A DNA stretch of 64,000 nt from Agelas oroides (lineage: Eukaryota; Porifera; Demospongiae; Agelasida; Agelasidae), in contig OX422183.1 of NCBI GenBank assembly GCA_949130485.1, forward strand, positions 26,055,316-26,119,315, given 5' to 3'. The notes under the pieces were generated by a model that ran no database searches, was not told the DNA's origin, and was given only the letters and a program-made list of their open reading frames with translations. Positions 391 through 58,118 of the stretch are shown in pieces; the first letter of the stretch is position 1; each line of letters begins with the position of its first letter. A program made the position numbers and the translations under genes.

Positions 391-1240
391 ACTTGACTGT
401 TGTTATTTTGCAAAGATAGTGGTTTTGTTGCTTCTTACTTCCTTTTTTCCTACTTACATGCACTTAATCCTTACTAAAGCATCCCTGCATGTCTCAAGAA
501 GTCCTGCTAGTAGAACTAGGGGAGCATCTGCATCTAGTGAGGTTTTCTGTATTGAAGAAGTCCCAGAATCAACTTTACACTGACATGAATTCTGCACAAT
601 GTAACACGCTATTACAGCAGAAACCCTTCCCCCTGACTCACCTCAGAACCAGCCAACTCCGCCTCCACTTATCCCCAGTAACAGTCTAACCTCTTTCCAC
701 AACACGTACACTAGCTCCCAGCATGAAAAGTCCTTATCTGGATTCCTTCAATTATTCAGCCCTACCCTAGCATACATGTAATCTGGAACAAATGGCCGTC
801 ACCCTCCCCCCCTCTCCCTCTCCCTCTCCCTCAAAGATCCCTACGGATTAGGGGAAGACATAATTTGCACAGTTTTGTGAGTGTTACCTCAGCAAATGGA
901 AGCTACGATGTGCGTCATAGCAGTGTTGGCGCTCCCCCACCCGACACCCCAACCACTGCTGTGTAGCTATCTCTTGGATACACTGACAACGCAGTGGGAA
1001 TGGAGGCGATGTAGCTAGCTACACTACCTGCAAGGTTGAACTTCTTAGAAGCTAGTAGCTATAGATAGTCAAGAGTACAAAAATCATATAAGCTAGGCTA
1101 CTAGTAATCTTGATGACGTTCTGCCAAATGCATGCAAGTGAACCAAAAAAATGAGCAAAATGTTTCCCCACTAGGGTGAGGTCTTGGGGTATTGGGCTAC
1201 CACGGCACACGCAACACTACATGGCCAGAACAAGTCCCAG

Positions 1241-1495
1241 GTAACACCTGATGGCAGAGCCAGAGCCCCTCTCCTCCTTGCAGCTGGCTAGGCTGACACC
1301 CCTGGTTCCACTCCGTGTCCAGAGTCTGTGGGATGTAAGGGAGGAACAGAGCGGCCCCTAGACCATATCGAGCAGCCAACTCGCATAGCTCTGAACCTTC
1401 TAACAGCTTTGGTTATGACTGTTAGTCCCCACAGTCTCCATGTAGGACACTCCCCAACAGCTGCGCACAGTGTGGGTACTAGTAAAAGTGTTTTT
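1241..1495 (+). ncRNA. Candidate Pol III-type RNA in spacer S1 (255 nt)
   Basis: An A-box-like TGGCAGAGCCAG (1252-1263) matches TRGCNNAGYNGG at 11 of 12 positions. A B-box-like GGTTCCACTCC (1304-1314) matches GGTTCGANTCC at 10 of 11. They start 52 bp apart, as in tRNA-derived promoters. The first run of four or more Ts downstream is T5 at 1491-1495, a normal Pol III terminator, and none lies between. The start is set ~11 nt before the A box by analogy with tRNA genes. A tRNA fold is not convincing: the T stem has a mismatch, the D stem does not form, and only about four of seven acceptor pairs form. A tRNA-derived SINE head or an unknown small RNA is more likely than a tRNA. The block lies in the most conserved part of the spacer and recurs in all five full copies. 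Function unknown; chance box matches cannot be excluded. Confidence 0.38.
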
Positions 1496-1499
1496 CTCC

Positions 1500-1518
1500 T
1501 ATTTATACTGCTATAAAA
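1500..1518. promoter_or_regulatory. Two opposed TATA-like boxes in S1
   Basis: TATAAATA reads leftward on the minus strand at 1507-1500, and TATAAAA reads rightward at 1512-1518, four bases apart. Both are unchanged in all five full spacers. If active, the right-facing box would drive transcription toward the downstream C-rich array, and the left-facing one through the core toward the end of the upstream array. No other promoter element was recognised. They sit immediately after the T5 run, so an A+T-rich terminator region is an alternative reading. Confidence 0.25.
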
Positions 1519-1631
1519 TGCGTCCCTAATAATTATGGGTTTCGAAACAATGAATATCATTAACGTCTCGTTAATTACATTTCCGCCTACGCGTCCGCGC
1601 GTTCGCTTGCACCTCATTAGCCCTCGCAGTC

Positions 1632-2183: not shown

Positions 2184-2546
2184 GATTTGCCAACTGGTGC
2201 TGGTGCACCCCCACTTGACCCACAACTGCCTCTGTTACTGTCCCACTATCCATTCCGTGTTCTTTTGTTTCTGTGTCTTTCACTTTTGTCCATCTGTCCC
2301 TGTCCCTATGTCCCTGTTTGCTTCCATGTATTCCTGTCCAGGAAATTTTCACCTAATGAACATCGATTTGCCAGTTGGTGTTGGTGCACCCCCACTTGAC
2401 GCACAACTGCCTCTGTTGCTGTCCCACTATCCATTCCATGTTCTGCTTCTGTGTCTTTCACTTTGTCCGTCTGTCCCTGTCCCTACGTCCCTGTCAATGT
2501 CCCTGTCACTATCCCTGTTCCCCTGTCCCTATCCCTGTTCCCCTGT
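2184..2546 (+). repeat. Duplicated leader at the start of array A1
   Basis: A 181-bp unit beginning at GATTTGCCA (2184 and 2365) is repeated in tandem. Each unit has GGTGCACCCCCACTTGAC and a match to CAACTGCCTCTGTT, then grades into satellite. It is the transition between spacer and array. S2, S5 and S6 also have a 181-bp period, S3 has 151 bp, and S4 has only one unit. Confidence 0.75.
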
Positions 2547-5500
2547 CCCTGTTACTGTCACTATCCCTGGCCCCTGTCCCTATTCCTCTGTCCCTTTCCC
2601 TGTTCTAATCCGTCTGTCCATGTCCCTATGTCTGTCCTTCTCCCCTTGCCCCGGTACCTGTCCCTGCCCATCTTCCTCTGTCCCAGGTCTGTCTCTGATC
2701 TCGTACCGGTACCAGTCCTTGCTTCTTTGTCATCTTCCCTCTGCCTCCACTGAAGTCCTTCTGCTCCTGTTTTTATCCCTCCAGGACCATTTCTGGCCCT
2801 CTCTTCCCGTTTCCCCATTCCTGTCCCTCTGTCCCTGTCTCTCTGTCCCTGTCCCTCTGTCCCTGTCACTCTGTCCGTGTCTCACTCGCTATTCCAGTCC
2901 CTCTTTCCTTATTCTTGTCCGTCTGTTGTGTTTCTGTTGCTGTCCAAGCCCCCCTTTCCATGTCCCTTTCCGTAGATCCCCGTTTCTGTCCTCCTTTCCC
3001 TGTTCCTGTCCCTGTCTGTCTGTCACAGTCCCTGTCCTTCGGTCCATGTCCATCTGCCCTTTCTGTGTTCCTGTACCTTTCGCTGTGATTCCTTCCTGTC
3101 CCTCTCTCAGCCTGTCACTGTCCCTCTGTCCCTTTCCCTACGTCTGTCAATTGTCCCTCCATCCCTGTGTCCTTGTCCGTCTGTCCTCGCCACTATTTCT
3201 GTGTCCCTCTCCCTGTTCACCTGTCCCCCTGTCCCTGTCATCTGTTCCGATCCCTGTCCCTGTCCTCTGTTCCGATCCCTGTCCCTCTGTGCTTGTCCCC
3301 TGTCACTCTCCCTGTCGCTCTCCCTGTCCCTCTATGCTGTCCCTCTGTCCTTCTCCGTCTGTCCTTGTGCCTCTGTCCTTGTCCCTCTGTCCTTGTCCCC
3401 TGTCACTCTCCCTGTCCCCCTGTCCCTGTGCCTCTGTTCTGGTCCCGTTCCCTCTGTCCTTGTCCCCTTTCCCCCTGTCGCTGACCCTCTGTCCCTGTCC
3501 CTCTGTGCTATCCCTCTGTCCTTCTCCCTCTGTCCTTGTCCCTCTGTCCCTGTCCCTCAGTCCCTGTCCCCTGGCACTCTCCCTGTCCCCCTATCCCTCT
3601 CCCTCTGTCGTGTCCCTCAGTCCCTGTCCTTCTTTCCCTATTCCAGTCCATTTGTCCCCTTTCATGCGCCCTTGTCCATCTGTCCTTTCCCCTATTTCTG
3701 TGTATCTCTACCTGTTCCCCTGTCCCCCTGTCCCTGCCCTCCTGTCCCTGTCCCTCTGTCCCTCTCACTGTGTCCCCGTTCCTGCCTATGTTTCTATCCA
3801 CCTCCCTCTTCCTTCTCCCCACCCCTCTGTCCCTGTACATCTCTCCGTGTCCCTCTGTCCTTACCCATCTGTCACGCTGTCCCTGTTCCGGTCCTTGTCC
3901 GTCTGTCTCTGTTCTTCTTTGTGTACCTCTCCTTGTCCCTCTGTCCCTGTACCTATCTCCCTTTCTCTGTCCCTGTCCTCATCTCAATCTCGCTCTTCAT
4001 TATCCATATCCCTTTGTCCCTGTAAATCTGGCCCTGTCACTGTGTTCCTGTTCCTGTCTTTGTCCCGATCCATCTCCCTCTTCCATGTCCCCATCCCTCT
4101 GTCCTTGTCCCTCTGTCCTTGTCCCTCTGTCCCTGTCCCTCTGTCCCTGTCCCTCTATCCCTGTCCCTCTGTCCTTGTCCCTGTCCTTGTCCCTTTGTTT
4201 CTGTCTCATCTCTACTTGTCCCTATAACTCTTTCCTTATTCCAGTGCCTGCATCCTTGTGCATCTGTCCTTCCCCTATTTCTGTGTCCCTCTTCCTGTCC
4301 TCCTCTCCCACTGTCCCTGTCCCTCTGTCGCTGTCCCTGTCCATCTGTCCTTTTTCCCTGTCACTCTCACTGTACCCTTGTCCCTGTCCCTATTTGTGTC
4401 CCTCTCCGTGTCCCTCTGTCCCTGTACCTGTCTCCTTGTCCCTCTTCCTGTCCTTGTCTCTATCTCCGTCTTCCTTCTCCATATCCCTTTGTCCCTGTAC
4501 ATCTGGCACTGTCACTCTGTCCCTGTTCCAGTTTTTGTCCATGTTCATCTCCATCTTCCTTGTCCCTATCCCTCTGTCCCTGTACATCTGGCCCTGTTGC
4601 TCTCTCCCTCTTCCTGTCTTTGTCCTATCCATCCGTCCATATCCCTTTGTTCTTGTACATCTGGCCCTGTCACTCTGTCTGTGTTCCTGTCTTTGTCCTT
4701 ATCCATCTCCCTCCTCCATGTCCCCCTCCCTCTGTACCTGTCCCTCTGTCCTTGGCCATCTGTCACTCTGTCGCTGTTCCCTGTCACTCTGTCCCTGTTC
4801 CTGTCCTTGTCCGTCTATCCTTGTCCCTGTCCCTATTTGTGTTCCTCTCCCTGTCCCTCTGTCCCTGTACCTATCTCCCTGTCTCTGTCCCTCTCCTCAT
4901 CTCTATCTCACTTTTCTTTATCCATATCCTTTTTTCCCTGTACATCTCGCCGTGTCACTCTGTCCCTGTTCCTGTCTTTGTCCCTATCCATCTCCCTCTT
5001 CCTTGTTCATATCCATTTGTCCCTGTACATCTGGCCCTGTCACTCTGTTCCTGTTCCTGTCCATCTGTATCTGTCCCTGTCACTGTCCCTCTATCCCTCT
5101 CTCTGTCCCTGTGTCCCTTACAATTTTTCCATCCCTCTGTCCCTGTTGTCCTTTCTATGTCCCAGTCCCAGTCCTTGTGCCTATGTATCTCCCTCTTCCC
5201 TGTCCTTCTATCCTGGTCCCTCCGTCCCCGTTCCTTTCTATCTGTCATAGTCCCTGTTCCTTTGCTTTCATTCATTTCCTATCCCTCCTGTCATTGTCCC
5301 TGTCCCTGTCACTCTATCTCTGTTCCTGTTGCTGTCCCTCTGCAGCTGTCCTTCAACCCCTGTCCCTGTTCCTGTTGTTATCACCACCGCTCTATCCCTG
5401 TCTGTGTCACCCTTTCCCTGTTCCTGTCCCTCTCCCGGTCCGTGTCTCAGTCACTATTCCAGTCACTGTTTCCTTGTTCTTGTCCATCTGTTGTGCTTCT

Positions 5501-8500
5501 GTTCCTGTCCAAGTCCCCCTTTCCATGTCCCTTTCCGTAGATCCCCGTTTCTGTCCTCCTTTCCCTGTTCCCGTCCCTGACTGTCTGTCACAGTCCCTGT
5601 CCTTCGGTCCATGTCCATCTTCCCTTTCTCTGTTCCTGTACCTCTCGCTGTGATTCCTTCCTGTCCCTCTCTCAGCCTGTCACTGTCCCTCTGTCCCTTT
5701 CCCTACCTCTGTCAATTGTCCCTCCGTCCCTGTATCCTTGTCTGTCTGTCCTCGCCCCTATTTCTGTGTCGCTCTCCCTGTTCACCTGTCCCCCTGTCCC
5801 TGTCCTCTGTTCCGATCCCTTTCCCTCTGTCCTTGTCCCCTGTCACTCTCCCTGTCACTCTCCCTGTCCCTCTGTGCTGTCCCTCTGTCCTTCTCCCTCT
5901 GTCCTTGTCCTTCTGTCCTTGTCCCTCTGTCCTTGTCCCCTGTCACTCTCCCTGTCCCCCTGTCCCTCTCCCTCTGTTCCAGTCCCGTTCCCTCTGTCCT
6001 TGTCCCCTGTCCCCCTGTCGCTGACCCTCTGTCCCTGTCCCTCTGTGCTATCCCTCTGTCCTTCTCCCTCTGTCCTTGTCCCTCTGACCCTGTCCTTCTG
6101 TCCTTGTTCCCTGTCACTCTCCCTGTCCCACTGTCCCTGTTCCTCTGTTGTGTCCCTCAGTCCCTGTCCCCTGTCACTCTCCCTGTCCCTCTGTCCCTCT
6201 CCCTCTGTCATGTCCCTCATTCCCTGTCCTTCTTTCCTTATTCCAGTCCATTTGTCCCTGTTCATGTGTCCTTGTCTGTCTGTCCTTTCCCCTATTTCTG
6301 TGTATCTCTACCTGTTCCCCTGTCCCCCTGTCCCCCTGTCCCCCTGTCCCTGTCCCCCTGTCCCCCTGTCCCTGTCCCTCTGTCCCTCTGACTGTGTCCC
6401 TGTTCCTGCCTATGTTTCTATCCACCTCCCTCTTCGTTCTCCCCATCCCTCTGTCCCTGTACATCTCTCCCTGTCCCTCTGTCCTTATCCATCTGTCACT
6501 CTGTCCCTGTTCCAGTCCTTGTCCGTTTGTATCTGTTCCTCTTTGTGTCCCTCTCCTTGTCCCTCTGTCCCTGTACCTATCTCCCTGTCTCTGTCCTTCT
6601 CCTCATCTCTATCTCCCTTTTCTTTATTCGTATCCTTTTGCCCCTGTACATCTCGCCCTGTCACTCTGTCCCTGTTCCTGTCTTTGTCCCTATCCATCTC
6701 CCTCTTCCTTGTTCATATCCGTTTATCCCTGTAGATCTGGCCCTGTCACTCTGTTCCTGTTCCTGTCCATCTGTATCTGTCCCTGTCACTGTCCCTCTAT
6801 CCCTCTCTCTGTCCCTGTGTCCCTTTCAATTTTTCCGTCCCTCTGTCCCTCTTGTCCTGTCTATGTCCCAGTCCCAGTCCTTGTGCCTATGTATCTCCCT
6901 CTTCCCTGTCCTTCTATCCTGGTCCCTCTATCCCCGTTCCTTTCTATCTGTCATAGTCCCTGTTCCTTTGCTGTCATTCATTTCCTATCCCTTCTGTCAT
7001 TGTCCCTGTCCCTGTCACTCTATCACTCTTCCTGTTCCTGTCCCTCGGCAGCTGTCCCTGTCCTTCAACCCCTGTCCCTGTTCCTGTTGTTATCACCACT
7101 GCTCTGTCCCTGTCTGTGTCACCCTGTCACCGTTCCTGTCCCTCTCCCGGTTCCCATCCGTCTGTCCCTCTGTTTCTCTTTCCCTCTATTCCTGTCCCTA
7201 TGTCTGGCCTTGTCCCTTTCACCCGGTCTGACAATACCTGTTGCTCCCTGTCCTTGTTCCTCTCCTTGTCCCTGCCCTTGTTCCTGTTCCTGTCCCTGTC
7301 TGTGTCACTTTGTCTGTGTCACTCTGTCCGTATCCCTGTCCCTCTGTCCCTGTTTGTGTCACCCTGTTCATGTTCCTGTCCTATGTCACTGTTAATCTGT
7401 CCCTGTCGCTATGTCTGTCCTTGTTTCTCTGTCCATGTCTGACTATTCCTATCGCTGTCCCTCTGTCGTTGTTTCTCTCTCCGTGTCTGACTATTCCTGT
7501 CACTGTCCCTGTCCCTCTGTCCCTCTCTCCCTGTCCTGTCCATGTTCCTGTCCGTGTTCCTGTCCCTTTCTTCCTGTTCCTATGTCCCATTGCCTGTTTG
7601 TGTGTCCATGTCCCAGTCCATTTCCCTCTACCCCTGTCCTTCTCCCCTGGTCCCTCTGTCCCTGTCTGTCTGTTCCTGTCACTCAGTCCTCGTTCCCTGT
7701 TCCTGGGAGCTGTCTATCTGTCACAGTCCCTATCCCTCTGTCCCTGTCGATCTGGCCTTGTCTTTGTCCCTGTCCCTATTGCGGTGATTTTATTCCTGTC
7801 CCAATCGCTGTCCCAAACTACCTTTTTCTCTCTCCCTCTGTCCCTATCCCTCTGTCCCTATCCCTCTGTCCCTGTCCCTTTTCCTGTCCCTATCCTTGTC
7901 CGTCTGTCCTGTCTGTGTCACCCTGTCCCTGTTCCTGTCCCTCTTTCCATATTCTTCTCCGTCTGTTGTCCTTCTGTTCCTGTCCAAGTCCCCCTTTCCA
8001 TGTCCATTTCCGTAGATCCCCATTTCTGTCCTCCTTTCCCTGTTCCTGTCCCTGTCTGTCTGTCTCAGTTCCTGTCCTTCGGTCCATATTCATCTGTCAT
8101 GTCTCTGTACCTGTCCCTTTCGCTGTCATTCTTTCCCGTCCCTCTCTCACTCTGTCACTGTCCTTCTGTCCCTTTCCCTATGTCTGTGAATTGTCCCTCC
8201 GTCCCTGTTTACTCTATCCCTGTCCCTGTGTCCTTGTCCATCTGTCCTCACCCCTATTTCTGTGTCCCTCTCCCTGTCCCCCTGTCATTGTCCCTCTGTT
8301 CCTGTCCCTGTCCGTCTGTCCTTGTCCCCAGTCACTCTCCCTGTCCCCCTGTACTTGTCCCTCTGTCGTGTCCCTCAGTCCCTCTCCCTCTGTCTCTGTC
8401 TCATCTCTCCTGGTCCCTATACCTCTTTCCTTAATCCAGTCCCTGTGTCCCTGTCCCTATGTCCTTGTGCATCTGTCCTTCACCTACTTCTGTGTCCCTC

Positions 8501-9769
8501 TCCCTGTCCTCTTGTCACGCTGTCCCTGTCCCTTTGTTACTGTCCTCTGTCATTGTCTCTCGGTCCCTATCCCTCTGTCCTTGTCCCCTGTCACTCACCC
8601 TGTCCCCCTGTCTCTATTTGTGTCCCTCTCCATGTCCCTCTGTCCCTGTACCTGTCTCCTTGTCTCTGTCCCTGTCCTTGTCTCTATCTCACTCTTCCTT
8701 GTCCATATCCATTTGTCCCCATACATCTGGCACTGTCATCCTGTCCCTGATCCTTTCTGTGTCCATATCCATCTCCGTCTTCCTTGTCCCTATCCCTCTG
8801 TCCCTGTACATCTGGCCCTGTCACTCTGTTTCTGTTCCTGTCCATCTGTCTCTGTCCCTGTCACTGTCCCTCTATCCCTCTCTCTGTCCCTGTGTCCCTT
8901 TCAATTTATCCGTCCCTCTGTCCCTGATCTCCTGTCTATGTCCCAGTCCCAGTCCTTGTGCATATGTATCTCCCTCTTCCCTGTCCTTCTATCCTAGTCC
9001 CTCTGTCCCCATTCTTTTCTATCTGTAATAGTCCCTGTCCCTTTTCTGTCATTGATTTCCTATCCCTGTCCCAGTCCCTCTGTTCCTCAGTCTCTGTCCC
9101 TATGTGTGTCCTTCTCCCTGTCACTCTATCCATTCCCCTGTTCCTATTCCCGTCCCTTTGCAGCTGTCCCTCTCCTTCAGCCCCAGTCCCTGTTTCTGGC
9201 GTTATCACTATCACTCTGTCCCTGTCTGTGTCACCCTGTCCCCATTCCTGTCCCTTTGTCCCTTCTCCTCTGTCCCTTTCTCTGTTCCCATCCGTCTGTC
9301 CCTGTCCCTCTGTTTCTCTTTCCCTCTGTTGCTGTCACTGCGTCTGGCCCTGTCCATCTATCCCTGTTTGACTATTCCTGTCAGTCCCTGTCCTTGTTCC
9401 TCTCTTTGTCCCTGCCCTTGTTCCTGTTCCTGTCCCTGTCTGTGTCACTTTGTCTCTGTCATTCTGTCCGTGTTCCTGTCCCTTTGTTTCTGTTCCTCTG
9501 TCCCAGTCCTTGTTTTGTCCGTCCCTGTCCCGGTCCATTTCCCTCTCTCCCTGTTTCCGTCCCTGTCCTTCTGTCCTGGTCCCTCTGTCTCTATCCATCT
9601 GTTCCTGTCACTCAGTCCCTGTTGCCTATTCCTGTCTATCTGTCACGGTCCCTGTCCATCTGTCATTGTCTCTGTCCCTGTGCATTTCACTGTCCTTATT
9701 GCTGTCCCCAACTCGCTGTCCTTCTGTCCCTGTCCCTATGAGTTCCTTAAGCTTGTCCCTCTGTCCCTA

Positions 9770-9889
9770 TTAACTCTACCCCTTGTTCATAGTGCCATGG
9801 GTGCATGTGTTAAATTTGGCATGTCCAAAGTTGTTTGGTGTATAATTTATATGTATATAGGCTGCCTTAACTGTTCTGAGGGTTATTGT
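9770..9889 (+). repeat. A+T-rich insert inside satellite, copy 1
   Basis: A ~120-bp non-satellite block (TTAACTCTACCCC, then GGGTGCATGTGTTAAATTTG, then TATAATTTATATGTATATAG). It contains the small palindrome TTTGG-CATGT-CCAAA. The same block recurs at 12284, 25671 and 43799, always at the end of the ~2.5-kb module. Confidence 0.75.
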
Positions 9890-12283: not shown

Positions 12284-12403
12284 ATTAACTCTACCCCTTG
12301 TTCATAGTGCCATGGGTGCATGTGTTAAATTTGGCATGTCCAAAGTTGTTTAGTGTATAATTTATATGTATATAGGCTGCCTTATCTGTTCTGAGGATTA
12401 TTG
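12284..12403 (+). repeat. A+T-rich insert inside satellite, copy 2
   Basis: A near-identical copy of the block at 9770, generated by the module duplication. It differs by a few bases (GTTTAGTG for GTTTGGTG; TTATCTG for TTAACTG). The short stretch holding CTATGAGTTCCTTAAGC just before copy 1 is missing here. Confidence 0.75.
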
Positions 12404-15001
12404 TCCCTATCCCTGTCCCTCTGTCCCTGTTTGTGTCACCCTGTTCATGTTCCTGTCCTTTGTCACTGTTCCTCTGTCCCTGTCCCTATGTCTGTCCTTG
12501 TTTCTCTGTCCCTGTCTGACTATTCCTGTCGCTGTCCCTCTGTCCTTGTTTCTCTGTGCCTGTGTGACTATCCCTGTCACAGTCCCTCTGTCCCTGTCAT
12601 ATCCTGTCCCTGTCCCTGTCCTGTCCCTGTCCTGTCCCTGTCCATGTGTCCCTCTGTCCCTGTCCTGTCCACGTTCCTGTCCCTCCTCCTGTTCCTTTCT
12701 TCCTGTTCCTATGTCCCATTGCCTGTTTGTGTGTCCATGTCCCAGTCCATTTCCCTCCATCCCTGTCCTTCTCCCCTGATCCCTCTGTCCCTGTCTATCT
12801 GTTCCTGTCACTCAGTCCCTGTTCCCTGTTCCTGGGTACTGTCTATCTGTCACAGTCCCTGTCCCTCTGTCCCTGTTGATCTGGTCTTGTCATGTCCCTG
12901 TCCCTATCGCTGTCCCAAACTACCTTTTCCTCTCTCCCTCTGTTCTTATCCCTCTGTCCCTGTCCCTTTTCCTGTCCCTATTCTTGTCCCTCTGCCCTGT
13001 CTTTGTCACCCTGTCCCTGTTCCTGTCGCTTTGTCTCTGTTTCTCCATCCCTTTCCCTGTTTCTAACTTTCTGTCTCAGTCCCTCTGTTCCTGTCCCTGT
13101 CCATTTCCCTGTCCATCTCCCTCTCTCCTTGTCCCGGATGTTGTCTCTCTATTCCTCCCTCTGTCCCTCTGTCCCTATCCATGTTCTCATATCTCTGCCC
13201 CTGTCCTTGTCCTTGTGCCTATTTGTCTCCCTCTTCCCTATTCTTCTTTCCAAGTCCCTCTGTTCCTGTTCATCTGTTCGGGCCCCTCTGTCCCTGTCCA
13301 TCTGTTCCTGTCACTCTGTCCCTGTTCCTATCTATCTGTTACAGTCGCCCTATCATTGTACCCCTGTCACTCTGTTCCTGTCCCTGTGCCCCTATTCCTG
13401 TCCCTTTCCGTCCGTCCATGTGCTGGCCTCTGTCCATATCCCTCTGTTCCTGTGACCCTCGACGTCCTTGTCCTTGTCACTATCCCTCTCTCCCTGTCCC
13501 CTTGTCCCTCTGTCCCTAACTCTTTCTCCTCTGTCCCTGTCTGTCTGTCCATCTTCCAGTTCCTCTACCTGTCCATATCCCTCTCTCCCTGTCCCTCTGT
13601 CCGTATCTCAGTCCTTATCTTACTCTCCCTGTCCCCGTCCCTGTCCCTCATTCCCTATTCATGTCCGTCTCTCCCTGTCCCTATGTCCCTTTCCCTGTCT
13701 CTCTCTCCCTGCCGCTTTCGCTCTATCCCCCTCTCCCTGTCCCTGTGTTTGTCCTTCTGTCCTTGACTCTACCCTCTCTTTCGTTGATATACCTGGTTCT
13801 ACTAGGTTCGTTATGACATCCCCCAACTTTTGTAGTTACGCTTAAATCTACTTGGTTGTACTTGACTCACCCAACTCTATGCTATAATGCTCTACCAGGT
13901 TTAGTTGAACTCTCATACAGTCTGCTACGTTGTACTACTAGAATCTATACAACACTCTGTATCCCACTCTACCGTAGCTTCTAATGGAATCTGCCTGACT
14001 CCACTACACTCTACCATAGCTCTACCTGATTCTAAGGGACTCTGCTTGACTCCACCTCTCTCTGCCATGGCTCTATCTGATTCTACAGGAGAGTATTTGA
14101 CTCCACCTCACTTCACCATGGATTTCCTGGTTCCAATCAATGCCACCCTTACTCTACATCTTTCTGGTTCTACTTGACTGTTGTTATTTTACAAAGATAG
14201 TGGTTTTGTTGCTTCTTACTTTCTTTTTTCCTACTTATATGCACTTACTCCTTACTAAAGCATCCCTGCATGTCTCAAGAAGTCATGCTAGAACTAGGGC
14301 AGACTCTGCATCTAGTGAGGTTTTTGTATTGAAGAAGTCCCACAATCAACTTTACACTGACATGAATTCTGCACAATGTAACACGCTATTCCAGCATAAA
14401 CCCTTCCCCCTGACTCACCTCAGAACCAGCCAACTCCCCCTCCAATTATCCCCAGTAACAGTCTAACCTCTTTCCACAACACGTACACTAGCTCCCAGCA
14501 TGAAGAGTCCTTATCTGGATTCCTTCAATTATTCAGCCCTACCCTAGCATGCATGTAATCAGGAACAAATGGCCGTCACCCTCCCCCCCCTTTCCACCTC
14601 CCTCAAAGATCCCTACGGATTATGGGAAGACATAATTTGCACAGTTTTGTGAGTGTTACCTCAGCAAATGGGAGCTACGATGTGCGTCGTAGCAGTGTTG
14701 GCGCTCCCCCACCCGACACCCCAACCACTGCTGTGTAGCTATCTCTTGGATACACTGACAACGCAGTGGGAATGGAGGCGATGTAGCTACACTACCTGCA
14801 ATGTTGAAGTTCTTAGAAGCTAGTATAGATAGTCAAGAGTACAAAGATCATATGAGCTAGGCAGTAATCTTGATGACATTCTGCCAAATGCATGCAACTG
14901 AACCAAAAAAAATGAGCAAAAAGTTTCCCCACTAGGGTGAGGTCTTGGGGTATTGGGCTACCACGACACACGCAACACTACATGGCCAGAACAAGTCCCA
15001 G

Positions 15002-15305
15002 GTAACACCTGATGGCAGAGCCAGAGCCCCTCTCCTCCTTGCAGCTGGCTAGGCTGACACCCCTGGTTCCACTCCGTGTCCAGAGTCTGTGGGATGTAAG
15101 GGAGGAACAGAGCGGCCCTAGACCATATCGAGCAGCCAACTCGCATAGCTCTGAACCTTCTAACAGCTTTGGTTATGACTGTTAGTCCCCACAGTCTCCA
15201 TGTAGGACACTCCCCAACAGCTGCGCACAGTGTGGGTACTAGTAAAAGTGTTGTTCTCCGATTTATACTGTTGCGCACAGTGTGGGTACTAGTAAAAGTG
15301 TTTTT
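15002..15305 (+). ncRNA. Candidate Pol III-type RNA in spacer S2 (304 nt variant)
   Basis: Same A box (15013-15024), B box (15065-15075) and T5 terminator (15301-15305) as in S1. The length differs by a 50-bp tandem duplication near the 3' end minus one deleted C in GCGGCCCTAG. In the first half of the duplication the T5 run is altered to TTGTT, so only one terminator remains and transcription would be longer. Function unknown. Confidence 0.33.
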
Positions 15306-15322
15306 CTCCTATTTATACTGCT
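15223..15322 (+). repeat. 50-bp tandem duplication specific to S2
   Basis: GCGCACAGTGTGGGTACTAG begins at 15223 and again at 15273. The left unit carries TTGTTCTCCG where the right unit and all other spacers have TTTTTCTCCT. The duplication covers the 3' end of the candidate RNA and part of the left-facing TATA-like box. Confidence 0.85.
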
Positions 15323-15328
15323 ATAAAA
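15310..15328. promoter_or_regulatory. Two opposed TATA-like boxes in S2
   Basis: Same arrangement as at 1500-1518: TATAAATA leftward (15317-15310) and TATAAAA rightward (15322-15328). The adjacent 50-bp duplication leaves a degenerate extra ATTTATACTG to the left. Confidence 0.25.
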
Positions 15329-15432
15329 TGCGTCCCTAATAATTATGGGTTTCGAAACAATGAATATCATTAACGTCTCGTTAATTACATTTCCGATTGC
15401 GCGTGTGCGCTTTCGCTTGCACCTCATTAGCC

Positions 15433-25790: not shown

Positions 25791-28591
25791 TCCCTATCCC
25801 TGTCCCTCTGTCCCTGTTTGTGTCACCCTGTTCATGTTCCTGTCCTTTGTCACTGTTCCTCTGTCCCTGTCCCTATGTCTGTCCTTGTTTCACTGTCCCT
25901 GTCTGACTATTCCCATTCCTGTCCCTCTGTCCTTGTTTCTCTGTGCCTGTGTGACTATCCCTGTCACAGTCCCTCTGTCCCTGTCATATCCTGTTCCTGT
26001 CCTGTCCCTGTCCTGTCCCTGTCCATCTGTCCCTCTGTCCCTGTCTTGTCCACGTTCCTGTCCGTGTTCCTGTCCCTTTCTTCCTGTTCCTATGTCCGAT
26101 TGCCTGTTTGTGTGTCCATATCCCAATCCATTTCCCTCCACCCGTGTCCTTCTCCCCTGGTCCCTATGTCCCTCTCTATCTGTTCCTGTCACTCAGTCCC
26201 TGTTCCCTGTTCCTGGGTACTGTCCCACTGTCCCTGTCCTGTCCATGTTCCTGTCCCTCATCCTGTCCCTTTCTTCCTGTTCCTATGTCCCATTGCCTGT
26301 TTGTTTGTGCATGTCCCAGTCCATTTCCCTCCACCCCTGTCCTTCTCCCCTGATCCCTCTGTCCCTGTCTATCTGTTCCTGTCACTCAGTCCCTGTTCCC
26401 TGTTCCTGGGTACTGTCTATCTGTCACAGTCCCTGTCTCTCTGTCCCTGTCGATCTGGCCTTGTCTATGTCCCTGTCCCTATCGCTGTCCCAAACTACCT
26501 TTCCCTCTGTCGTTATCCCTCTGTCCCTGTCCCTTTTTGTGTCCCTATTCTTGTCCCTCTGTCCTGTCTGTGTCACCCTGTCCCTGTTCCTGTCCCTTTG
26601 TCTCTGTTTCTCCATCCCTTTCCCTGTTTCTATCTTTCTGTCTCAGTCACTGTTTGTATGTCCCTCCGTTCCTGTCCCTGTCCATTTCCCTGTCCATCTC
26701 CCTCTCTGCTTGTCCCGGATGTTGTCTCTCTATTCCTCACTCTGTCCCTCTGTCCCTATCCATGTTCTCCTATCTCTGCCCCTGTCCTTGTCCTTGTGCC
26801 TATTTGTCTCCCTCTTCTTCTTTCCAAGTCCCTCTGTGCCTGTCCATCTGTTCCTGTCACTCTGTCCCTGTTCCTATCTATCTGTTAGTCGCCCTATCAT
26901 TGTACCCCTGTCACTCTGTTCCTGTCCCTGTGCCTTTGTTCCTGTCCCTTTCCGTCTGTCCATGTGCTGGCCTCTGTCCATGTCCCTCTGTTCCTGTGAC
27001 CCTCGACGTCCTTGTCCTTGTCACTATCCCTCTCTCCCTGTCCCTGTACCTGTGCCTTTGTCCCAAACTCTTTGTCCTTGTCCCTCTGTCCCTAACTCTT
27101 TCTCCTCTGTCCCTGTCTGTCTGTCCATCTTCCAGTTCCTCTACCTGTCCATCTCCCTCTCTCCCTGTCCCTGTCCCTCTGTCCGTATCTCAGTCCCTGT
27201 CTTTCTCTCCCTGTCCCTGTCCCTGTCGCTCATTCCCTATCCATGTCCCTCTCTCCCTGTTGCTATGTACCTTTCCCTGTCTCTCTCTCCCTGCCTCTTT
27301 CGCTCTATACCCCTCTCCCTGTCCCTGTGTTTGTCGTTCTGTCCTTGACTCTACCCTCTCTTTCGTTGATATACCTGGTTCTACTAGGTTCATTATGACA
27401 TCCCCCAACTTTTGTAGTTGTACTGGAATACCGTTAAGTCTACTTCGTTGTACTTGACTCTACCCAACTCTATGCTATAATGCTCTACCAGGTTTAGTTG
27501 AACTCTCCTACAGTCTGCTACATTGTACTACTAGAATCTATACAACACTCTGTATCCCACTCTACCGCAGCTTCTAATGGAATCTGCCTGACTCCACTAC
27601 ACTCTACCATAGCTCTACCTGATTCTAAGGGACTGTGCTTGACTCCACCTCTCTCTGCCATGGCTCTATCTGATTCTACAGGAGAGTATTTGACTCCACC
27701 TCACTTCACCATGGATTTCCTAGTTCCAATCAATGCCACCCTTACTCTACATCTTTCTGGTTATTTTACAAAGATAGTGGTTTTGTTGCTTCTTACTTCC
27801 TTTTTTCCTACTTATATGCACTTACTCCTTACTAAAGCATCCCTGCATGTCTCAAGAAGTCATGCTAGTAGAACTAGGGCAGAATCTGCATCTAGTGAGG
27901 TTTTCTGTATTGAAGAAGTCCCACAATCAACTTTACACTGACATGAATTCAGCACAATGTAACACGCAATTCCAGCAGAAACCCTTCCCCCTGACTCACC
28001 TCAGAACCAGCCAACTCCCCCTCCACTTATCCCCAGTAACAGTCTAACCTCTTTCCACAACACGTACACCAGCTCCCAGCATGAAGAATCCTTATCTGGA
28101 ATCCTTCAATTATTCAGTCCTACCCTAGCATACATGTAATCTGGAACAAATGGCCATCACCTTCCCCCCTCTCCCTCTCCCTCAAAGATCCCTACGGATT
28201 AGGGGAAGACATCATTTGCACAGTTTTGTGAGTGTTACCTCAGCAAATGGGAGCTACGATGTGCGTCGTAGCAGTGTTGGCGCTCCCCCACCCGACACCC
28301 CAACCACTGCTGTGTAGCTATCTCTTGGATACACTGACAACGCAGTGGGAATGGAGGCGATGTAGCTAGCTACACTACCTGCAAGGTTGAACTTCTTAGA
28401 AGCTAGTAGCTATAGATAGTCAAGAGTACAAAAATCATATAAGCTAGGCTACTAGTAATCTTGATGACATTCTGCCAAATGCATGCAAGTGAACCAAAAA
28501 AATGAGCAAAATGTTTCCCCACTAGGGTGAGGTCTTGGGGTATTGGGCTACCACGACACACGCAACACTACATGGCCAGAACAAATCCCAG

Positions 28592-28846
28592 GTAACACCT
28601 GATGGCAGAGCCAGAGCCCCTCTCCTCCTTGCAGCTGGCTAGGCTGACACCCCTGGTTCCACTCCGTGTCCAGAGTCTGTGGGATGTAAGGGAGGAACAG
28701 AGCGGCCCCTAGACCATATCGAGCAGCCAACTCGCATAGCTCTGAACCTTCTAACAGCTTTGGTTATGACTGTTAGTCCCCACAGTCTCCATGTAGGACA
28801 CTCCCCAACAGCTGCGCACAGTGTGGGTACTAGTAAAAGTGTTTTT
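28592..28846 (+). ncRNA. Candidate Pol III-type RNA in spacer S3 (255 nt)
   Basis: A box 28603-28614, B box 28655-28665 and T5 28842-28846 have the same spacing and total length as in S1. Only a single change was noticed inside (CAAATCCC for CAAGTCCC, just upstream of the A box). Identity of both boxes and of the terminator across copies is the main support; transcription is inferred. Confidence 0.38.
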
Positions 28847-28850
28847 CTCC

Positions 28851-28869
28851 TATTTATACTGCTATAAAA
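28851..28869. promoter_or_regulatory. Two opposed TATA-like boxes in S3
   Basis: TATAAATA leftward (28858-28851) and TATAAAA rightward (28863-28869), identical to S1. Confidence 0.25.
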
Positions 28870-29444
28870 TGCGTCCCTAATAATTATGGGTTTCGAAACA
28901 ATGAATATCATTAACGTCTCGTTAATTACATTTCCGCTTGCACCTCATTAGCCCTCGCGGTCGCGGAACCAGACTCGGACTCCGCGAGCTAACCAGATCC
29001 AAACGCAGTTTTTGTCACTACTGGCAGGAGCCGTGTGAAGGTCTGCAATCTAGATCAAAGGACAAATGTTAGCTTCAGGCTAGGGTATAGCTGGAAGTAA
29101 CAGCTAGCCACATGATCATGGCTGAGAGTCAACGTATCAGAGACAGTGCTGCATTACGTCACAGATGATGTGGTGTCTTCTGGTTTCCCATGGTGTCTCA
29201 TCGTCTAGCAGGTACAGGGTGCACTTGCAGATTGCTCTGAAATGAACAGTCAGTAAGATATCAAGGTGATTGTGTAACCAACATAGGCAGTGTTGTCCCA
29301 TTGTGTCTCATGATGTCACATGGGATCTCATCATGTTACATGATGGTTCGTGTTGTCTGATGGTTTCAAGGTTTCATGTCGAACCACCCTGATGACCAGT
29401 GGTTTTGAAGCATATCTACCAGTCACTTTGCCATAACTGCCCAA

Positions 29445-44780: not shown

Positions 44781-46670
44781 GTCCCTATCCATGTTCTCAT
44801 ATCTCTGCCCCTGTCCTCTTCCTTGTGCCTATTTGTCTCCCTCTTCCCTATCCTTCTTTCCAAGTCTCTCTGTTCCTGTTCATCTGTTCCGGCCCCTCTG
44901 TCCCTGTCCATCTGTTCCTGTCACTCTGTCCCTGTTCCTATCTATCTGTTACAGTCGCCCTATCATTGTACCCCTGTCACTCTGTTCCTGTCCCTGTGCC
45001 TTTGTTCCTGTCCTTTTCCGTCTGTCCATGTGCTGGCCTCTGTCCATGTACCTCTGTTCCTGTGACCCTCGACGTCTTTCTCCTTCTCACTATACCTCTC
45101 TCCCTGTCCCTGTACCTGTGCCTTTGTCCCAAACTCTTTGGCCTTGTCCCTCTGGTCCTAACTCTTTCTCCTCTGTCCCTGTCTGTCTGTCCATCTTCCA
45201 GTTCCTCTACCTGTCCATCTCCCTCTCTCCCTGTCCCTGTCCCTCTGTCCGTATCTCAGTCCCTGTCTTTCTCTCCCTGTCCCAGTCCCTATCCCTCATT
45301 CGCTATCCATGACCCTCTCTCCCTGTCCCTGTGTCCCTTTCCCTGTCTCTGACTCCCTGCCTCTTTCGCTCTATTCCCCTCTCCCTGTCCCTGTGTTTGT
45401 CCTTCTGTCCTTGACTCTACCCTCTCTTTCGTTGATATACCTGGTTCTACTAGGTTCATTATGACATCCCCCAACTTTTGTAGTTGTACTGGATTACCCT
45501 TAACTCTACTTGGTTGTACTTGACTCTACCCAGCTCTATACTATAATGCTCTACCAGGTTTAGTTGAACTCTGCTACAGTCTGCTACGTTGTACTACTAG
45601 AATCTATACAACACTCTGTATCCCGCTCTACCGTAGCTTCTAATGGAATCTGCCTGACCCCACTACACTCTACCGTAGCTCTACCTGATTCTAAGGGACT
45701 CTGCTTGACTCCACCTCCCTCTGCCATGGCTCTACCTGATTATACAGGAGAGTATTTGACTCCAACTCACTTCACCATGGATTTCCTGGTTCCAATCAAT
45801 GCCACCCTTACTCTACATCTTTCTAGTTCTACTTGACTGTTGTTATTTTGCAAAGATAGTGGTTTTGTTGCTTCTTACTTCCTTTTTTCCTACTTATATG
45901 CACTTACTCCTTACTAAAGCATCCCTACATGTCTCAAGAAGTCATGCTAGTAGAACTAGGGCAGAATCTACATCTAGTGAGGTTTTCTGTATTGAAGAAG
46001 TCCCACAATCAACTTTATACTGACATGAATTCTGCACAATGTAACACGCTATTACAGCAGAAACCCTTCCCCCTGACTCACCTCAGAACCAGCCAACTTC
46101 CCCTCCACTTATCCCCAGTAACAGTCTAACCTCTTTCCACAACACGTACACTAGCTCCCAGCATGAAGAGTCCTTATCTGGATTCCTTCAATTATTCAGC
46201 CCTACCCTAGCATACATGTAATCTGGAACAAATGGCCATCACCCTCCTACCCTCTCCCTCACCCTCAAAGATCCCTACGGATTAGGGGAAGACATAATTT
46301 GCACAGTTTTGTGAGTGTTACCTCAGTAAATGGGAGCTACGATGTGCATCCTAGCAGTGTTGGCGCTCCCCCACCCGACACCCCAACCACTGCTGTGTAG
46401 CTATCTCTTGGATACACTGACAACGCAGTGGGAATGGAGGCAATGTAGCTAGCTACACTACCTGCAAGGTTGAACTTCTTAGAAGCTAGTAGCTATAGAT
46501 AGTCAGGAGTACAAAAATCATATAAGCTAGGCAGTAATCTTGATGACATTCTGCCAAATGCATGCAAGTGAACCAAAAAAATGAGCAAAAAGTTTCCCCA
46601 CTAGGGTGAGGTCTTGGGGTATTGGGCTACCACGACACACGCAACACTACATGGCCAGAACAAGTCCCAG

Positions 46671-46925
46671 GTAACACCTGATGGCAGAGCCAGAGCCCCT
46701 CTCCTCCTTGCAGCTGGCTAGGCTGACACCCCTGGTTCCACTCCGTGTCCAGAGTCTGTGGGATGTAAGGGAGGAACAGAGCGGCCCCTAGACCATATCG
46801 AGCAGCCACCTCGCATAGCTCTGAACCTTCTAACAGCTTTGGTTATGACTGTTAGTCCCCACAGTCTCCAAGTAGGACACTCCCCAACAGCTGCGCACAG
46901 TGTGGGTACTAGTAAAAGTGTTTTT
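46671..46925 (+). ncRNA. Candidate Pol III-type RNA in spacer S5 (255 nt)
   Basis: A box 46682-46693, B box 46734-46744 and T5 46921-46925. Internal changes relative to S1 are few (CCACCTCG for CCAACTCG; CCAAGTAGG for CCATGTAGG), and none touches the boxes or terminator. Confidence 0.38.
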
Positions 46926-46929
46926 CTCC

Positions 46930-46948
46930 TATTTATACTGCTATAAAA
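46930..46948. promoter_or_regulatory. Two opposed TATA-like boxes in S5
   Basis: TATAAATA leftward (46937-46930) and TATAAAA rightward (46942-46948), unchanged from S1 although a nearby base differs (GCGTCGCTAAT). Confidence 0.25.
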
Positions 46949-47539
46949 TGCGTCGCTAATAATTATGGGTTTCGAAACAATGAATATCATTAACGTCTCG
47001 TTAATTACATTTCCGCTTGCGTGTGCACGCGTTCGCTTGCACCTCATTAGCCCTCGCGGTCGCGGAACCAGACTCGGACTCCGCGAGCTAACCAGATCCA
47101 AACGCAGTTTTTGTCACTACTGGCAGGAGCCGTGTGAAGGTCTGCAGTCTAGATCAAAGGACAAATGTTAGCTTCAGGCTAGGGTATAGCTGGAAGTAAC
47201 AGCTAGCCACACGATCATGGCTGCGAGTCAACGTATCAGAGACAGTGCTGCATTGCGTCTCAGATGATGTGGTGTCTTCTCGTTTCCCATGCCATGGTGT
47301 CTCATCGTCTAGCAGGTAGAGGGTGCACTTGCAGATTACTCTGAAATGAACAGTCAGTAAGATATCAAGGTGATTGTGTAACCAACATAGGCAGTGTTGT
47401 CCCATTGTGTCTCATGATGTCACATGGGATCTCATGTTACATGATGGTTCGTGTTGTCTGATGGTTTCAAGGTTTCATGTCGAAGAACCCTGATGACCTG
47501 TGTTTTTGAAGCATATCCAGCAAAAAACAAGTCACTTTG

Positions 47540-55917: not shown

Positions 55918-57140
55918 CTGGTTCTACTAGGTTCATTATGACATCCCCCAACTTTTGTAGTTGTACTGGATTACCCTTAACTCTACTTTGTTGTACTTGA
56001 CTCACCCAACTCTATGCTATAATGCTCTGCCAGGTTTAGTTGAACTCTCCTACAGTCTGCTACGTTGTACTACTAGAATCTATACAACACTCTGTATCCC
56101 ACTCTTCCGCAGCTTCTAATGGAATCTGCCTGACTCCACTACACTCTACCATAGCTCTACCTGATTCTAAGGGACTGTGCTTGACTCCACCTGTCTCTGC
56201 CATGGCTCTATCTGATTCTACAGTAAAGTATTTGACTCCACCTCACTTCACCATGGATTTCCTGGTTCCAATCAATGCCACCCTTACTCTACATCTTTGT
56301 GGTTCTACTTGACTGTTGTCATTTTGCAAAGATAATGGTTTTGTTGCTTCTTCCTTTTTTCCTACTTATATGCACTTACTCCTTACTAAAGCATCCCTGC
56401 ATGTCTCAAGAAGTCATGCTAGTACAACTAGGGCAGAATCTACATCTAGTGAGGTTTTCTGTATTGAAGAAGTCCCACAATCAACTTTACACTGACATGA
56501 ATTCTGCTCAATGTAACACACTATTACAGCAGAAATCCTTCCCCCTGACTCACCTCAGAACCAGCCAACTCCCCCTCCACTTATCCCCAGTAACAGTCTA
56601 ACCTCTTTCCACAACACGTACACTAGCTCCCAGCATGAAGAGTCCTTATCTGGATTCCTTCAATTATTCAGCCCTACCCTAGCATACATGTAATCTGGAA
56701 CAAATGGCCATCACCCTCCCACCCTCTCCCTCTCCCTCAAAGATCCCTACGGATTAGGGGAAGACATAATTTGCAGTTTTGTGAGTGTTACCTCAGCAAA
56801 TGGGAGCTACGATGTGCGTCGTAGCAGTGTTGGCGCTCCCCCACCCGACACCCCAACCACTGCTGTGTAGCTATCTCTTGGATACACTGACAACGCAGTG
56901 GGAATGGAGGCGATGTAGCTAGCTACACTACCTGCAAGGTTGAAATTCTTAGAAGCTAATAGCTATAGATAGTGAGGTGTACAAAAATCATATAAGCTAG
57001 GCAGTAATGTTGATGACATTCTGCCAAATGCATGCAAGTGAACTAAAAAAATGAGCAAAAAGTTTCCCCACTAGGGTGAGGTCTTGGGGTATTGGGCTAC
57101 CACGACACACGCAACACTACATGGCCAGAACAAGTCCCAG

Positions 57141-57395
57141 GTAACACCTGATGGCAGAGCCAGAGCCCCTCTCCTCCTTGCAGCTGGCTAGGCTGACACC
57201 CCTGGTTCCACTCCGTGTCCAGAGTCTGTGGGATGTAAGGGAGGAACAGAGCGGCCCCTAGACCATATCGAGCAGCCAACTTGCATAGCTCTGAACCTTC
57301 TAACAGCTTTGGTTATGACTGTTAGTCCCCACAGTCTCCATGTAGGACACTCCCCAACAGCTGCGCACAGTGTGGGTACTAGTAAAAGTGTTTTT
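57141..57395 (+). ncRNA. Candidate Pol III-type RNA in spacer S6 (255 nt)
   Basis: A box 57152-57163, B box 57204-57214 and T5 57391-57395. The one internal change noticed relative to S1 is CAACTTGCAT for CAACTCGCAT. Length and control elements are unchanged. Confidence 0.38.
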
Positions 57396-57399
57396 CTCC

Positions 57400-57418
57400 T
57401 ATTTATACTGCTATAAAA
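57400..57418. promoter_or_regulatory. Two opposed TATA-like boxes in S6
   Basis: TATAAATA leftward (57407-57400) and TATAAAA rightward (57412-57418), identical to S1. Confidence 0.25.
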
Positions 57419-58118
57419 TGCGTCCCTAATAATTATGGGTTTCGAAACAATGAATATCATTAACGTCTCGTTAATTACATTTCCGCTTGCACCTCATTAG
57501 CCCTCGCGGTCGCGGAACCAGACTCGGACTCCGCGAGCTAACCAGATCCAAACGCAGTTTTTGTCACTACTGCCAGGAGCCGTGTGAAGGTCTGCAGTCT
57601 AGATCAAAGGACAAATGTTAGCTTCAGGCTAGGGTATAGCTGGAAGTAACAGCTAGCCACACGATCATGGCTGCGAGTCAACGTATCAGAGACAGTGCTG
57701 CATTGCGTCTCAGATGATGTGGTGTCTTCTGGTTTCCCATGGTGTCTCATCGTCTAGCAGGTACAGGGTGCACTTGCAGATTGCTCTGAGATGAACAGTC
57801 AGTAAGATATCAAGGTGATTGTGTAACCAACATAGGCAGTGTTGTCCCATTGTGTCTCATGATGTCACATGGGATCTCATGTTACATGATAGTTCGTGTT
57901 GTCTGATGGTTTCAAGGTTTCATGTCGAAGCACCCTGAAGACCAGTGTTTTTGAAGCATATCTACCAAAAACAAAAATGTCACTTTGCCATAACTGCCCA
58001 ACCCATTTATGACATAAATGCCACACTTATTCAAGCGATGAATGTCTCATTCCCATATTACATTGCATTTTGTAACTTCTGACTTTATGCATCTTGAAAT
58101 TTTCACCTAATGAACATC

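What the first reader, a model, noticed from the sequence alone, without database searches (positions are those of the whole stretch)
1241..1495. Possible Pol III RNA gene in every full spacer of a macrosatellite
A box (11/12), B box (10/11) 52 bp apart, no intervening T4, and a T5 terminator define a 255-nt unit in S1, S3, S5 and S6 and 304 nt in S2. The boxes and terminator are identical in all five copies. I could not match it to any RNA family I know. A tRNA-derived SINE frozen in the repeat is the simplest alternative; a functional satellite-linked small RNA is the exciting one.
Basis: partly seen in the sequence, partly recalled or inferred. Interest (0 to 1): 0.7.

Follow-up and report, generated by a model that had tools for sequence, protein, structure and literature searches.

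The report
Tandem U6-promoter small RNA genes
A repeated block in what looks like a sponge genome probably encodes an unidentified small RNA of about 320 letters, read from the strand opposite to the one first proposed and switched on by the same kind of promoter as the splicing RNA U6; it matters because dozens of near-identical copies suggest that the animal uses a lot of an RNA that matches no catalogued family.

Summary
A better signal lies on the other strand. The genome's own U6 gene carries AAACCCATACTTAYTTC, CACTATAAATA and TTACTAGT at -65, -33 and -8. The same trio, at identical spacing, sits on the minus strand at the block's edge: PSE 1542-1526, TATA 1510-1500, TTACTAGT 1485-1478. 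44 of 45 aligned array copies score 31-32 of 36; 200 shuffled spacers reach 24. The RNase P RNA gene, not used to define the motif, has the same promoter. I infer a Pol III type-3 gene of about 321 nt, 1477 to 1157 on the minus strand, in 42-47 tandem copies over 0.58 Mb. Positions 1241-1495 are about five times less variable between copies than the rest of the spacer. No Rfam match rises above noise; RNase P lies elsewhere; 7SK was not found; MRP could not be searched. Outside the array most copies have lost parts of either promoter. Mitochondrial gene order suggests a sponge. Transcription is untested.

The parts
1157..1477 (-). Inferred Pol III transcript in unit S1, about 321 nt; +1 near 1477, 3' end at the T4 1160-1157
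   Evidence: Start set by U6 spacing, end by minus-strand T runs; low variation 1241-1495
1478..1542 (-). U6-type promoter of S1: PSE 1542-1526 (14/17), TATA 1510-1500 (10/11), TTACTAGT 1485-1478 (8/8)
1551..1564 (-). Word GTTAATGATATTCA shared with the U6 upstream region (-116 in U6, -87 here); possible distal element
   Evidence: longest shared word 14; 200 mono-shuffles reach at most 11
1145..1160 (-). Terminator region: T4 at 1160-1157 and T7 at 1151-1145
   Evidence: a T4+ run there in 41 of 41 scorable copies, anchor word not found in 4 more
14918..15287 (-). Same gene in S2, with a 50-bp duplication of its start region
   Evidence: promoter at 15352; duplication; ends by offset from S1
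15288..15352 (-). U6-type promoter of S2
28508..28828 (-). Same gene in S3
   Evidence: promoter at 28893; ends by offset from S1
28829..28893 (-). U6-type promoter of S3
46587..46907 (-). Same gene in S5
   Evidence: promoter at 46972; ends by offset from S1
46908..46972 (-). U6-type promoter of S5
57057..57377 (-). Same gene in S6
   Evidence: promoter at 57442; ends by offset from S1
57378..57442 (-). U6-type promoter of S6
1252..1314 (+).

Best explanation
Each full spacer carries a gene on the minus strand for an RNA of about 321 nt. By analogy with U6 (recalled mechanism), SNAPc-like and TBP-containing factors would bind the PSE (1542-1526) and TATA box (1510-1500), Pol III would start near 1477 just after TTACTAGT and stop in the T runs at 1160-1145. 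The tandem array would raise the dose of the RNA, as other tandem small-RNA genes do; copies outside it look mostly truncated or decayed. Shown: promoter words and spacing, T runs, copy number, low variation. Inferred: transcription, Pol III, exact ends, function, and that the A and B boxes are coincidental.
For: U6 (C18:1529636, 117 bits) and a partial U6 copy share PSE, TATA and start words; the same trio on the window's minus strand scores 32 of 36 with the same spacings, 32 and 25. Array copies: 34 of 45 score 32, 10 score 31, 1 scores 27; both spacings exact in 42 of 45; best of 200 mono-shuffled spacers 24. Genome-wide CCCATANTTAN{14,24}TATAAATA: 57 matches against 1 for the reversed control; 42 lie in the array, all minus; 11 of the 15 others have the exact U6 spacing. 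The RNase P RNA gene (C7, E 3.4e-46), not used to define the motif, has it: 30 of 36, same spacings. A T4+ run at the end in 41 of 41 scorable copies. Variation 1241-1495 0.0076 against 0.035 and 0.037 on the two sides; without CpG sites 0.0061 against 0.026 and 0.030; shared variants 0.021 against 0.10 and 0.15 per site. Ten aligned sequences fold better on the RNA strand than 100 of 100 column shuffles. L085 has lost the B box but keeps promoter (31 of 36) and a constrained core against L086 (8 of 185 against 157 of 908 differences in flanks).
Against: No transcript data. L082-L084 keep the core (L083/L084 0 of 194, L082/L083 3 of 194 differences) without a recognisable promoter. L074/L075 and L076/L077 show no core constraint. 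The 3' part of the RNA is less constrained (1161-1240: 0.023) and the terminator A-runs vary (0.043). Single sequences fold no better than shuffles (1165-1490: z -0.3 minus, +0.9 plus). The column-shuffle test does not keep dinucleotides, and the plus strand also does fairly well (2 of 100, or 4 of 100 without L080). The motif was read from two U6 loci. Low variation may partly be gene conversion.
Confidence: 0.86

Rival explanations
1. One reading: plus-strand Pol III type-2 gene with internal A and B boxes and T5 terminator (255 nt).
For: Boxes and T5 in 5 of 5 window copies; in 45 array copies T5 in 45, A in 43 and B in 43; 3 of 2000 shuffles. In outside copies the A box is kept slightly better than the average 12-mer of the core (0.63 against 0.58).
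Against: All three kept in 1 of 16 outside copies; B deleted in 3. 69% of the core's 11-mers are kept more often than the B box in outside copies (31% in the array). Conservation starts about 75 nt before its start. The T5 is also explained as the stretch between TATA and start on the other strand.
Confidence: 0.05
2. Pol II small nuclear RNA gene: the same PSE used by Pol II on the minus strand.
For: Type 3 promoters can drive either polymerase (PMC9841428, passages).
Against: TATA at U6 and RNase P spacing and T4 runs at the end argue for Pol III. U2 genes of this genome, a needed comparison, were not obtained.
Confidence: 0.05
3. A DNA element (insulator, conversion hotspot or satellite promoter) with no RNA product.
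For: Conserved noncoding block in a satellite; no single-sequence fold signal; L082-L084 stay similar in the core without a promoter.
Against: Does not predict a U6-type promoter at one edge and T runs at the other.
Confidence: 0.04
4. Variant of the best explanation: the RNA is a known family too diverged for Rfam, such as 7SK or RNase MRP (overlaps with the best explanation, so confidences do not add up to one).
For: Length and promoter fit (recalled); [quoted passage not shown] a GARAR match at RNA position 205.
Against: No GATC for 7SK (motif recalled); RF00100 finds nothing in the genome (19 of 4775 candidates scored, control silent). RF00030 in the genome did not complete.
Confidence: 0.25

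Closest known systems
U6 snRNA and RNase P RNA genes (Pol III type 3) of the same genome
   Same: PSE, TATA and start words with the same spacing
   Different: No Rfam match of the RNA to either family; 42-47 tandem copies against 4 U6 matches (best candidates only) plus one more U6-like locus by promoter, and 1 RNase P match
Human U2 snRNA (RNU2) tandem array
   Same: Small nuclear RNA gene in a tandem array (PMC9138887, abstract start in listing; unit details recalled)
   Different: U2 is made by Pol II and is shorter (recalled); this RNA matches no family
Human 1q23.3 tRNA macrosatellite (PMC4041453; abstract and outline)
   Same: Pol III genes in 7.3-kb tandem units, 9-43 per allele
   Different: tRNA genes and CTCF there; no tRNA here
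7SK RNA
   Same: Pol III type 3, about 330 nt (recalled)
   Different: No GATC motif, no Rfam match

Membership tests
Pol III type-3 (U6-class) gene | PSE of the species at about -65 | tested here: met
   14/17 in S1; the four words listed for 45 copies match 13 or 14 of 17
Pol III type-3 (U6-class) gene | TATA box at U6 spacing | tested here: met
   CAGTATAAATA in 43 of 45, close variants in 2; PSE-TATA spacing 32 in 45 of 45
Pol III type-3 (U6-class) gene | T4+ terminator | tested here: met
   41 of 41 scorable of 45; 8 of 10 rows of the alignment with relatives, counted by eye
Pol III type-3 (U6-class) gene | Pol III occupancy and transcript | not testable with these tools
   no RNA or ChIP data
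Pol III type-2 (A/B box) gene | A and B boxes kept across copies | tested here: not met
   array 43 and 43 of 45, but A, B and T4 together in 1 of 16 outside copies; B deleted in L074, L075, L085
tRNA-derived SINE | tRNA-like head and many copies in unlike flanks | tested here: not met
   no tRNA; 16 outside copies by two patterns, most of 13 with shared flanks; target-site duplications not tested
7SK RNA | GATC-bearing 5' hairpin; Rfam match | tested here: not met
   no GATC (motif recalled); no match
RNase P RNA | Rfam match | tested here: not met
   none in the block; the genome's one match is on C7
RNase MRP RNA | Rfam match; absence elsewhere | tested here: inconclusive
   no match in the block; genome search did not complete
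Telomerase RNA | template of more than one TTAGGG repeat | tested here: not met
   longest stretch 6 nt in S1; TTAGGG telomere assumed

The most novel reading that the evidence does not exclude
An undescribed animal Pol III RNA of about 320 nt, amplified to some 45 tandem genes inside a macrosatellite in a sponge, with more copies than were found for U6 or RNase P RNA in the same genome; either a sponge-specific RNA or the sponge form of 7SK.
Probability: 0.55. Interest if true: 0.78.

Novelty: new variant of a known kind. Interest (0 to 1): 0.64.

Why it matters
From general knowledge, type-3 Pol III genes are few and usually of low copy number, and little is catalogued for early animals. A 0.58-Mb array of one would show that a satellite can serve as a dosage array for a small RNA, and gives a ready probe (45 nearly identical genes) for an unknown RNP. 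The species-specific PSE and TATA found here also allow the other Pol III type-3 genes of this genome to be listed.

Tried and rejected
Considered and dropped: plus-strand Pol III gene; SINE; protein-coding exon (copies differ by indels of 1, 4, 6, 8 and 10 nt); splice-site reading of 1241-1335 (supposed exon and intron equally conserved); long open frames in the CTGTCC repeats (frames overlap); single-sequence RNA stability (one of 16 windows, minus 1310-1460, reached z -2.85). Bacterial promoter and terminator scan not informative. The U6 promoter was also sought upstream of 1241 on the plus strand and is not there (best PSE 9/17).

Literature: listings of searches showed nothing on a sponge macrosatellite RNA; species not identified (no abstract shown gives 259 Mb).

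Left untested: 18S (RF01960), U2 (RF00004), 7SL (RF00017) and MRP (RF00030) in the genome, because the machine did not answer. Aligned array copies are 45 of at least 47; L033 and L034 (tandem duplicates of L032) were dropped only. One search stopped with an error and was redone, where three of nine pairs gave no aligned sites. L087-L089 are too short to show the promoter. One search's strict test saw T4+ in 40 and all three marks in 36 of 45 array copies; one search shows the T5 itself in 45.

Full report
What was claimed. The letters are as described in 5 of 5 full spacers, and the combination is rare in shuffled spacer (3 of 2000). Rfam finds nothing in the window at its curated thresholds and only noise in the block (two matches, best E 2.1) or in the relative L086 (four matches, best E 0.64). 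There is no tRNA.

Where it lies. The window is part of contig C1 of a 259-Mb assembly in 141 contigs. The spacer repeats on C1 from about 25.75 to 26.33 Mb. Mitochondrial COX1 is split by a stretch with a LAGLIDADG-like frame, reads TGA as Trp, and sits in the order nad6-nad3-trnR-nad4L-cox1-trnS-trnA-trnC-nad1 (genes named by eye); from memory this order is close to that of demosponges. CpG is depleted in most of the unit (o/e 0.24-0.34; 0.64-0.66 in the part after the block), which fits a methylated sponge genome (recalled). A COX1 match without TGA on C107 suggests bacterial contigs in the assembly.

Conservation. I aligned 45 array copies: the 40 plus 5 seen only. Mean pairwise difference in 1241-1495 is 0.0075 against 0.037 in the rest of 601-2160; the lowest 245-nt window outside is 0.0275. 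Without CpG sites and two duplicate copies it is 0.0061 against 0.026 and 0.030, and shared variants are five to seven times rarer. So something is kept here.

Copies outside the array. Two patterns from the block found 59 and 63 places, with 0 in each reversed control; 46 and 47 lie in the array, 13 and 16 outside. In the 13 compared, 25-nt bins from 1166 to 1490 differ from S1 at 0.009-0.070 per site, except 1191-1215 (0.101), against 0.064-0.179 in 991-1165 and 0.12-0.19 in 1491-1590; 941-990 is low again. The conserved stretch thus begins well upstream of the A box. The B box is deleted in three copies and missing with the whole 5' half in L088 and L089; A, B and T4 are all kept in 1 of 16. 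This weakens the A/B-box gene, though outside copies often lack the other promoter too (below).

The promoter. The genome's U6 gene and a partial U6 copy share three words upstream. Scanning for them gave no good match upstream of 1241 on the plus strand but a 14/17 PSE and a 10/11 TATA on the minus strand, 32 nt apart as in U6, followed by TTACTAGT at the U6 distance. 34 of 45 copies score 32 of 36, 10 score 31, 1 scores 27; both spacings equal those of U6 in 42; shuffles reach 24. In the 64-kb window there are five full-scoring sites, one per full spacer, all minus, plus two weaker overlapping ones in S2's duplication. A 14-nt word GTTAATGATATTCA is shared further upstream (shuffles reach 11). 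Genome-wide the PSE-TATA pattern has 57 matches against 1 in the control: 42 in the array and 15 elsewhere, 11 of these with exact U6 spacing. Among the 11 are three U6 loci, the relative L085, a further relative L093 that keeps promoter and only the first part of the RNA, and three copies of another locus on C3, of which I fetched two: both hold a hairpin RNA of about 75 nt, and one gives a weak nematode sbRNA match (E 0.67). As an independent check, the RNase P RNA gene (E 3.4e-46), not used to define the motif, has AAACCCATACTCAATAG and CACTATAAATA at the same spacing and the GGAGAAAA that follows TATA in the array.

The gene. Counting from U6, the start is near 1477 on the minus strand and the RNA runs to a T4 at 1160-1157, backed by a T7 at 1151-1145: 321 nt. 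T4 or longer is present in 41 of 41 scorable copies. The conserved stretch is then transcript plus promoter, and the plus-strand T5 is the A-run between TATA and start. On an alignment of ten sequences the consensus fold beats 100 of 100 column shuffles on the RNA strand (z -3.5) and 98 of 100 on the other (z -1.75); without L080 100 and 96 of 100. Single sequences are unremarkable.

Doubts. No transcription was tested. The promoter scores 29 or more in only 3 of 13 outside copies long enough to show it. Pair comparisons are mixed: core below flanks in L085/L086 (8 of 185 against 157 of 908; both with promoter, L085 without B box), L083/L086, L082/L083 and L083/L084, although L082-L084 lack a recognisable promoter; no constraint in L076/L077 (15 of 157 against 130 of 1709), and a faster core in L074/L075 (4 of 140 against 17 of 1985). 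The 3' 80 nt vary more (0.023) and so do the A-runs (0.043). Gene conversion may add to the low variation. What decides for me is the match in words and spacing to U6 and RNase P, not the outside copies.

Identity. No match to U6, RNase P (found on C7) or tRNA; no telomerase template beyond 6 nt. 7SK lacks support (no GATC; no RF00100 match, where the control was silent too). MRP stayed untested in the genome. MRP and 7SK are reported as difficult or impossible to detect in invertebrates (PMC2770079, passages), so a diverged member is possible. Taking PSE and TATA from Pol III genes of the same species follows PMC4287351 (passages), which used U6 and 7SK promoters and reports a sponge RNase P RNA gene with typical Pol III signals. 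PMC9841428 (passages) notes that type 3 promoters can drive Pol II or III.

Verdict.

Noticed in passing
window 941-988: A second well-kept stretch of the spacer (array variation 0-0.024 per 8-nt bin, mostly near 0.006; 0.014-0.031 in the 3-5 outside copies that reach it), with no promoter found beside it.
   Followed up: partly
L094, L095 (C3:3609584, 3816921; a third, not fetched, at 3672462): About 75-nt hairpin RNA behind the same U6-type promoter; weak nematode sbRNA match on L095, so a possible Y RNA/sbRNA.
   Followed up: partly
L096, L097, L098 (C8:3184998, C17:1879190, C20:6023771): Three further loci with the exact U6-type promoter spacing and unidentified products.
   Followed up: no
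L083 234-580 (similar frame in L082): Weak Death-domain match (E 0.074, below Pfam's cut-off) beside copies on C17.
   Followed up: partly
window 2300-13790 and the like: Strand-biased CTGTCC repeats leave plus-strand frames of up to 1624 codons open in the window, overlapping in different frames; looks like composition, not coding.
   Followed up: partly
window 15222-15320: S2 has a 50-bp tandem duplication that doubles the gene's TATA/start region.
   Followed up: partly
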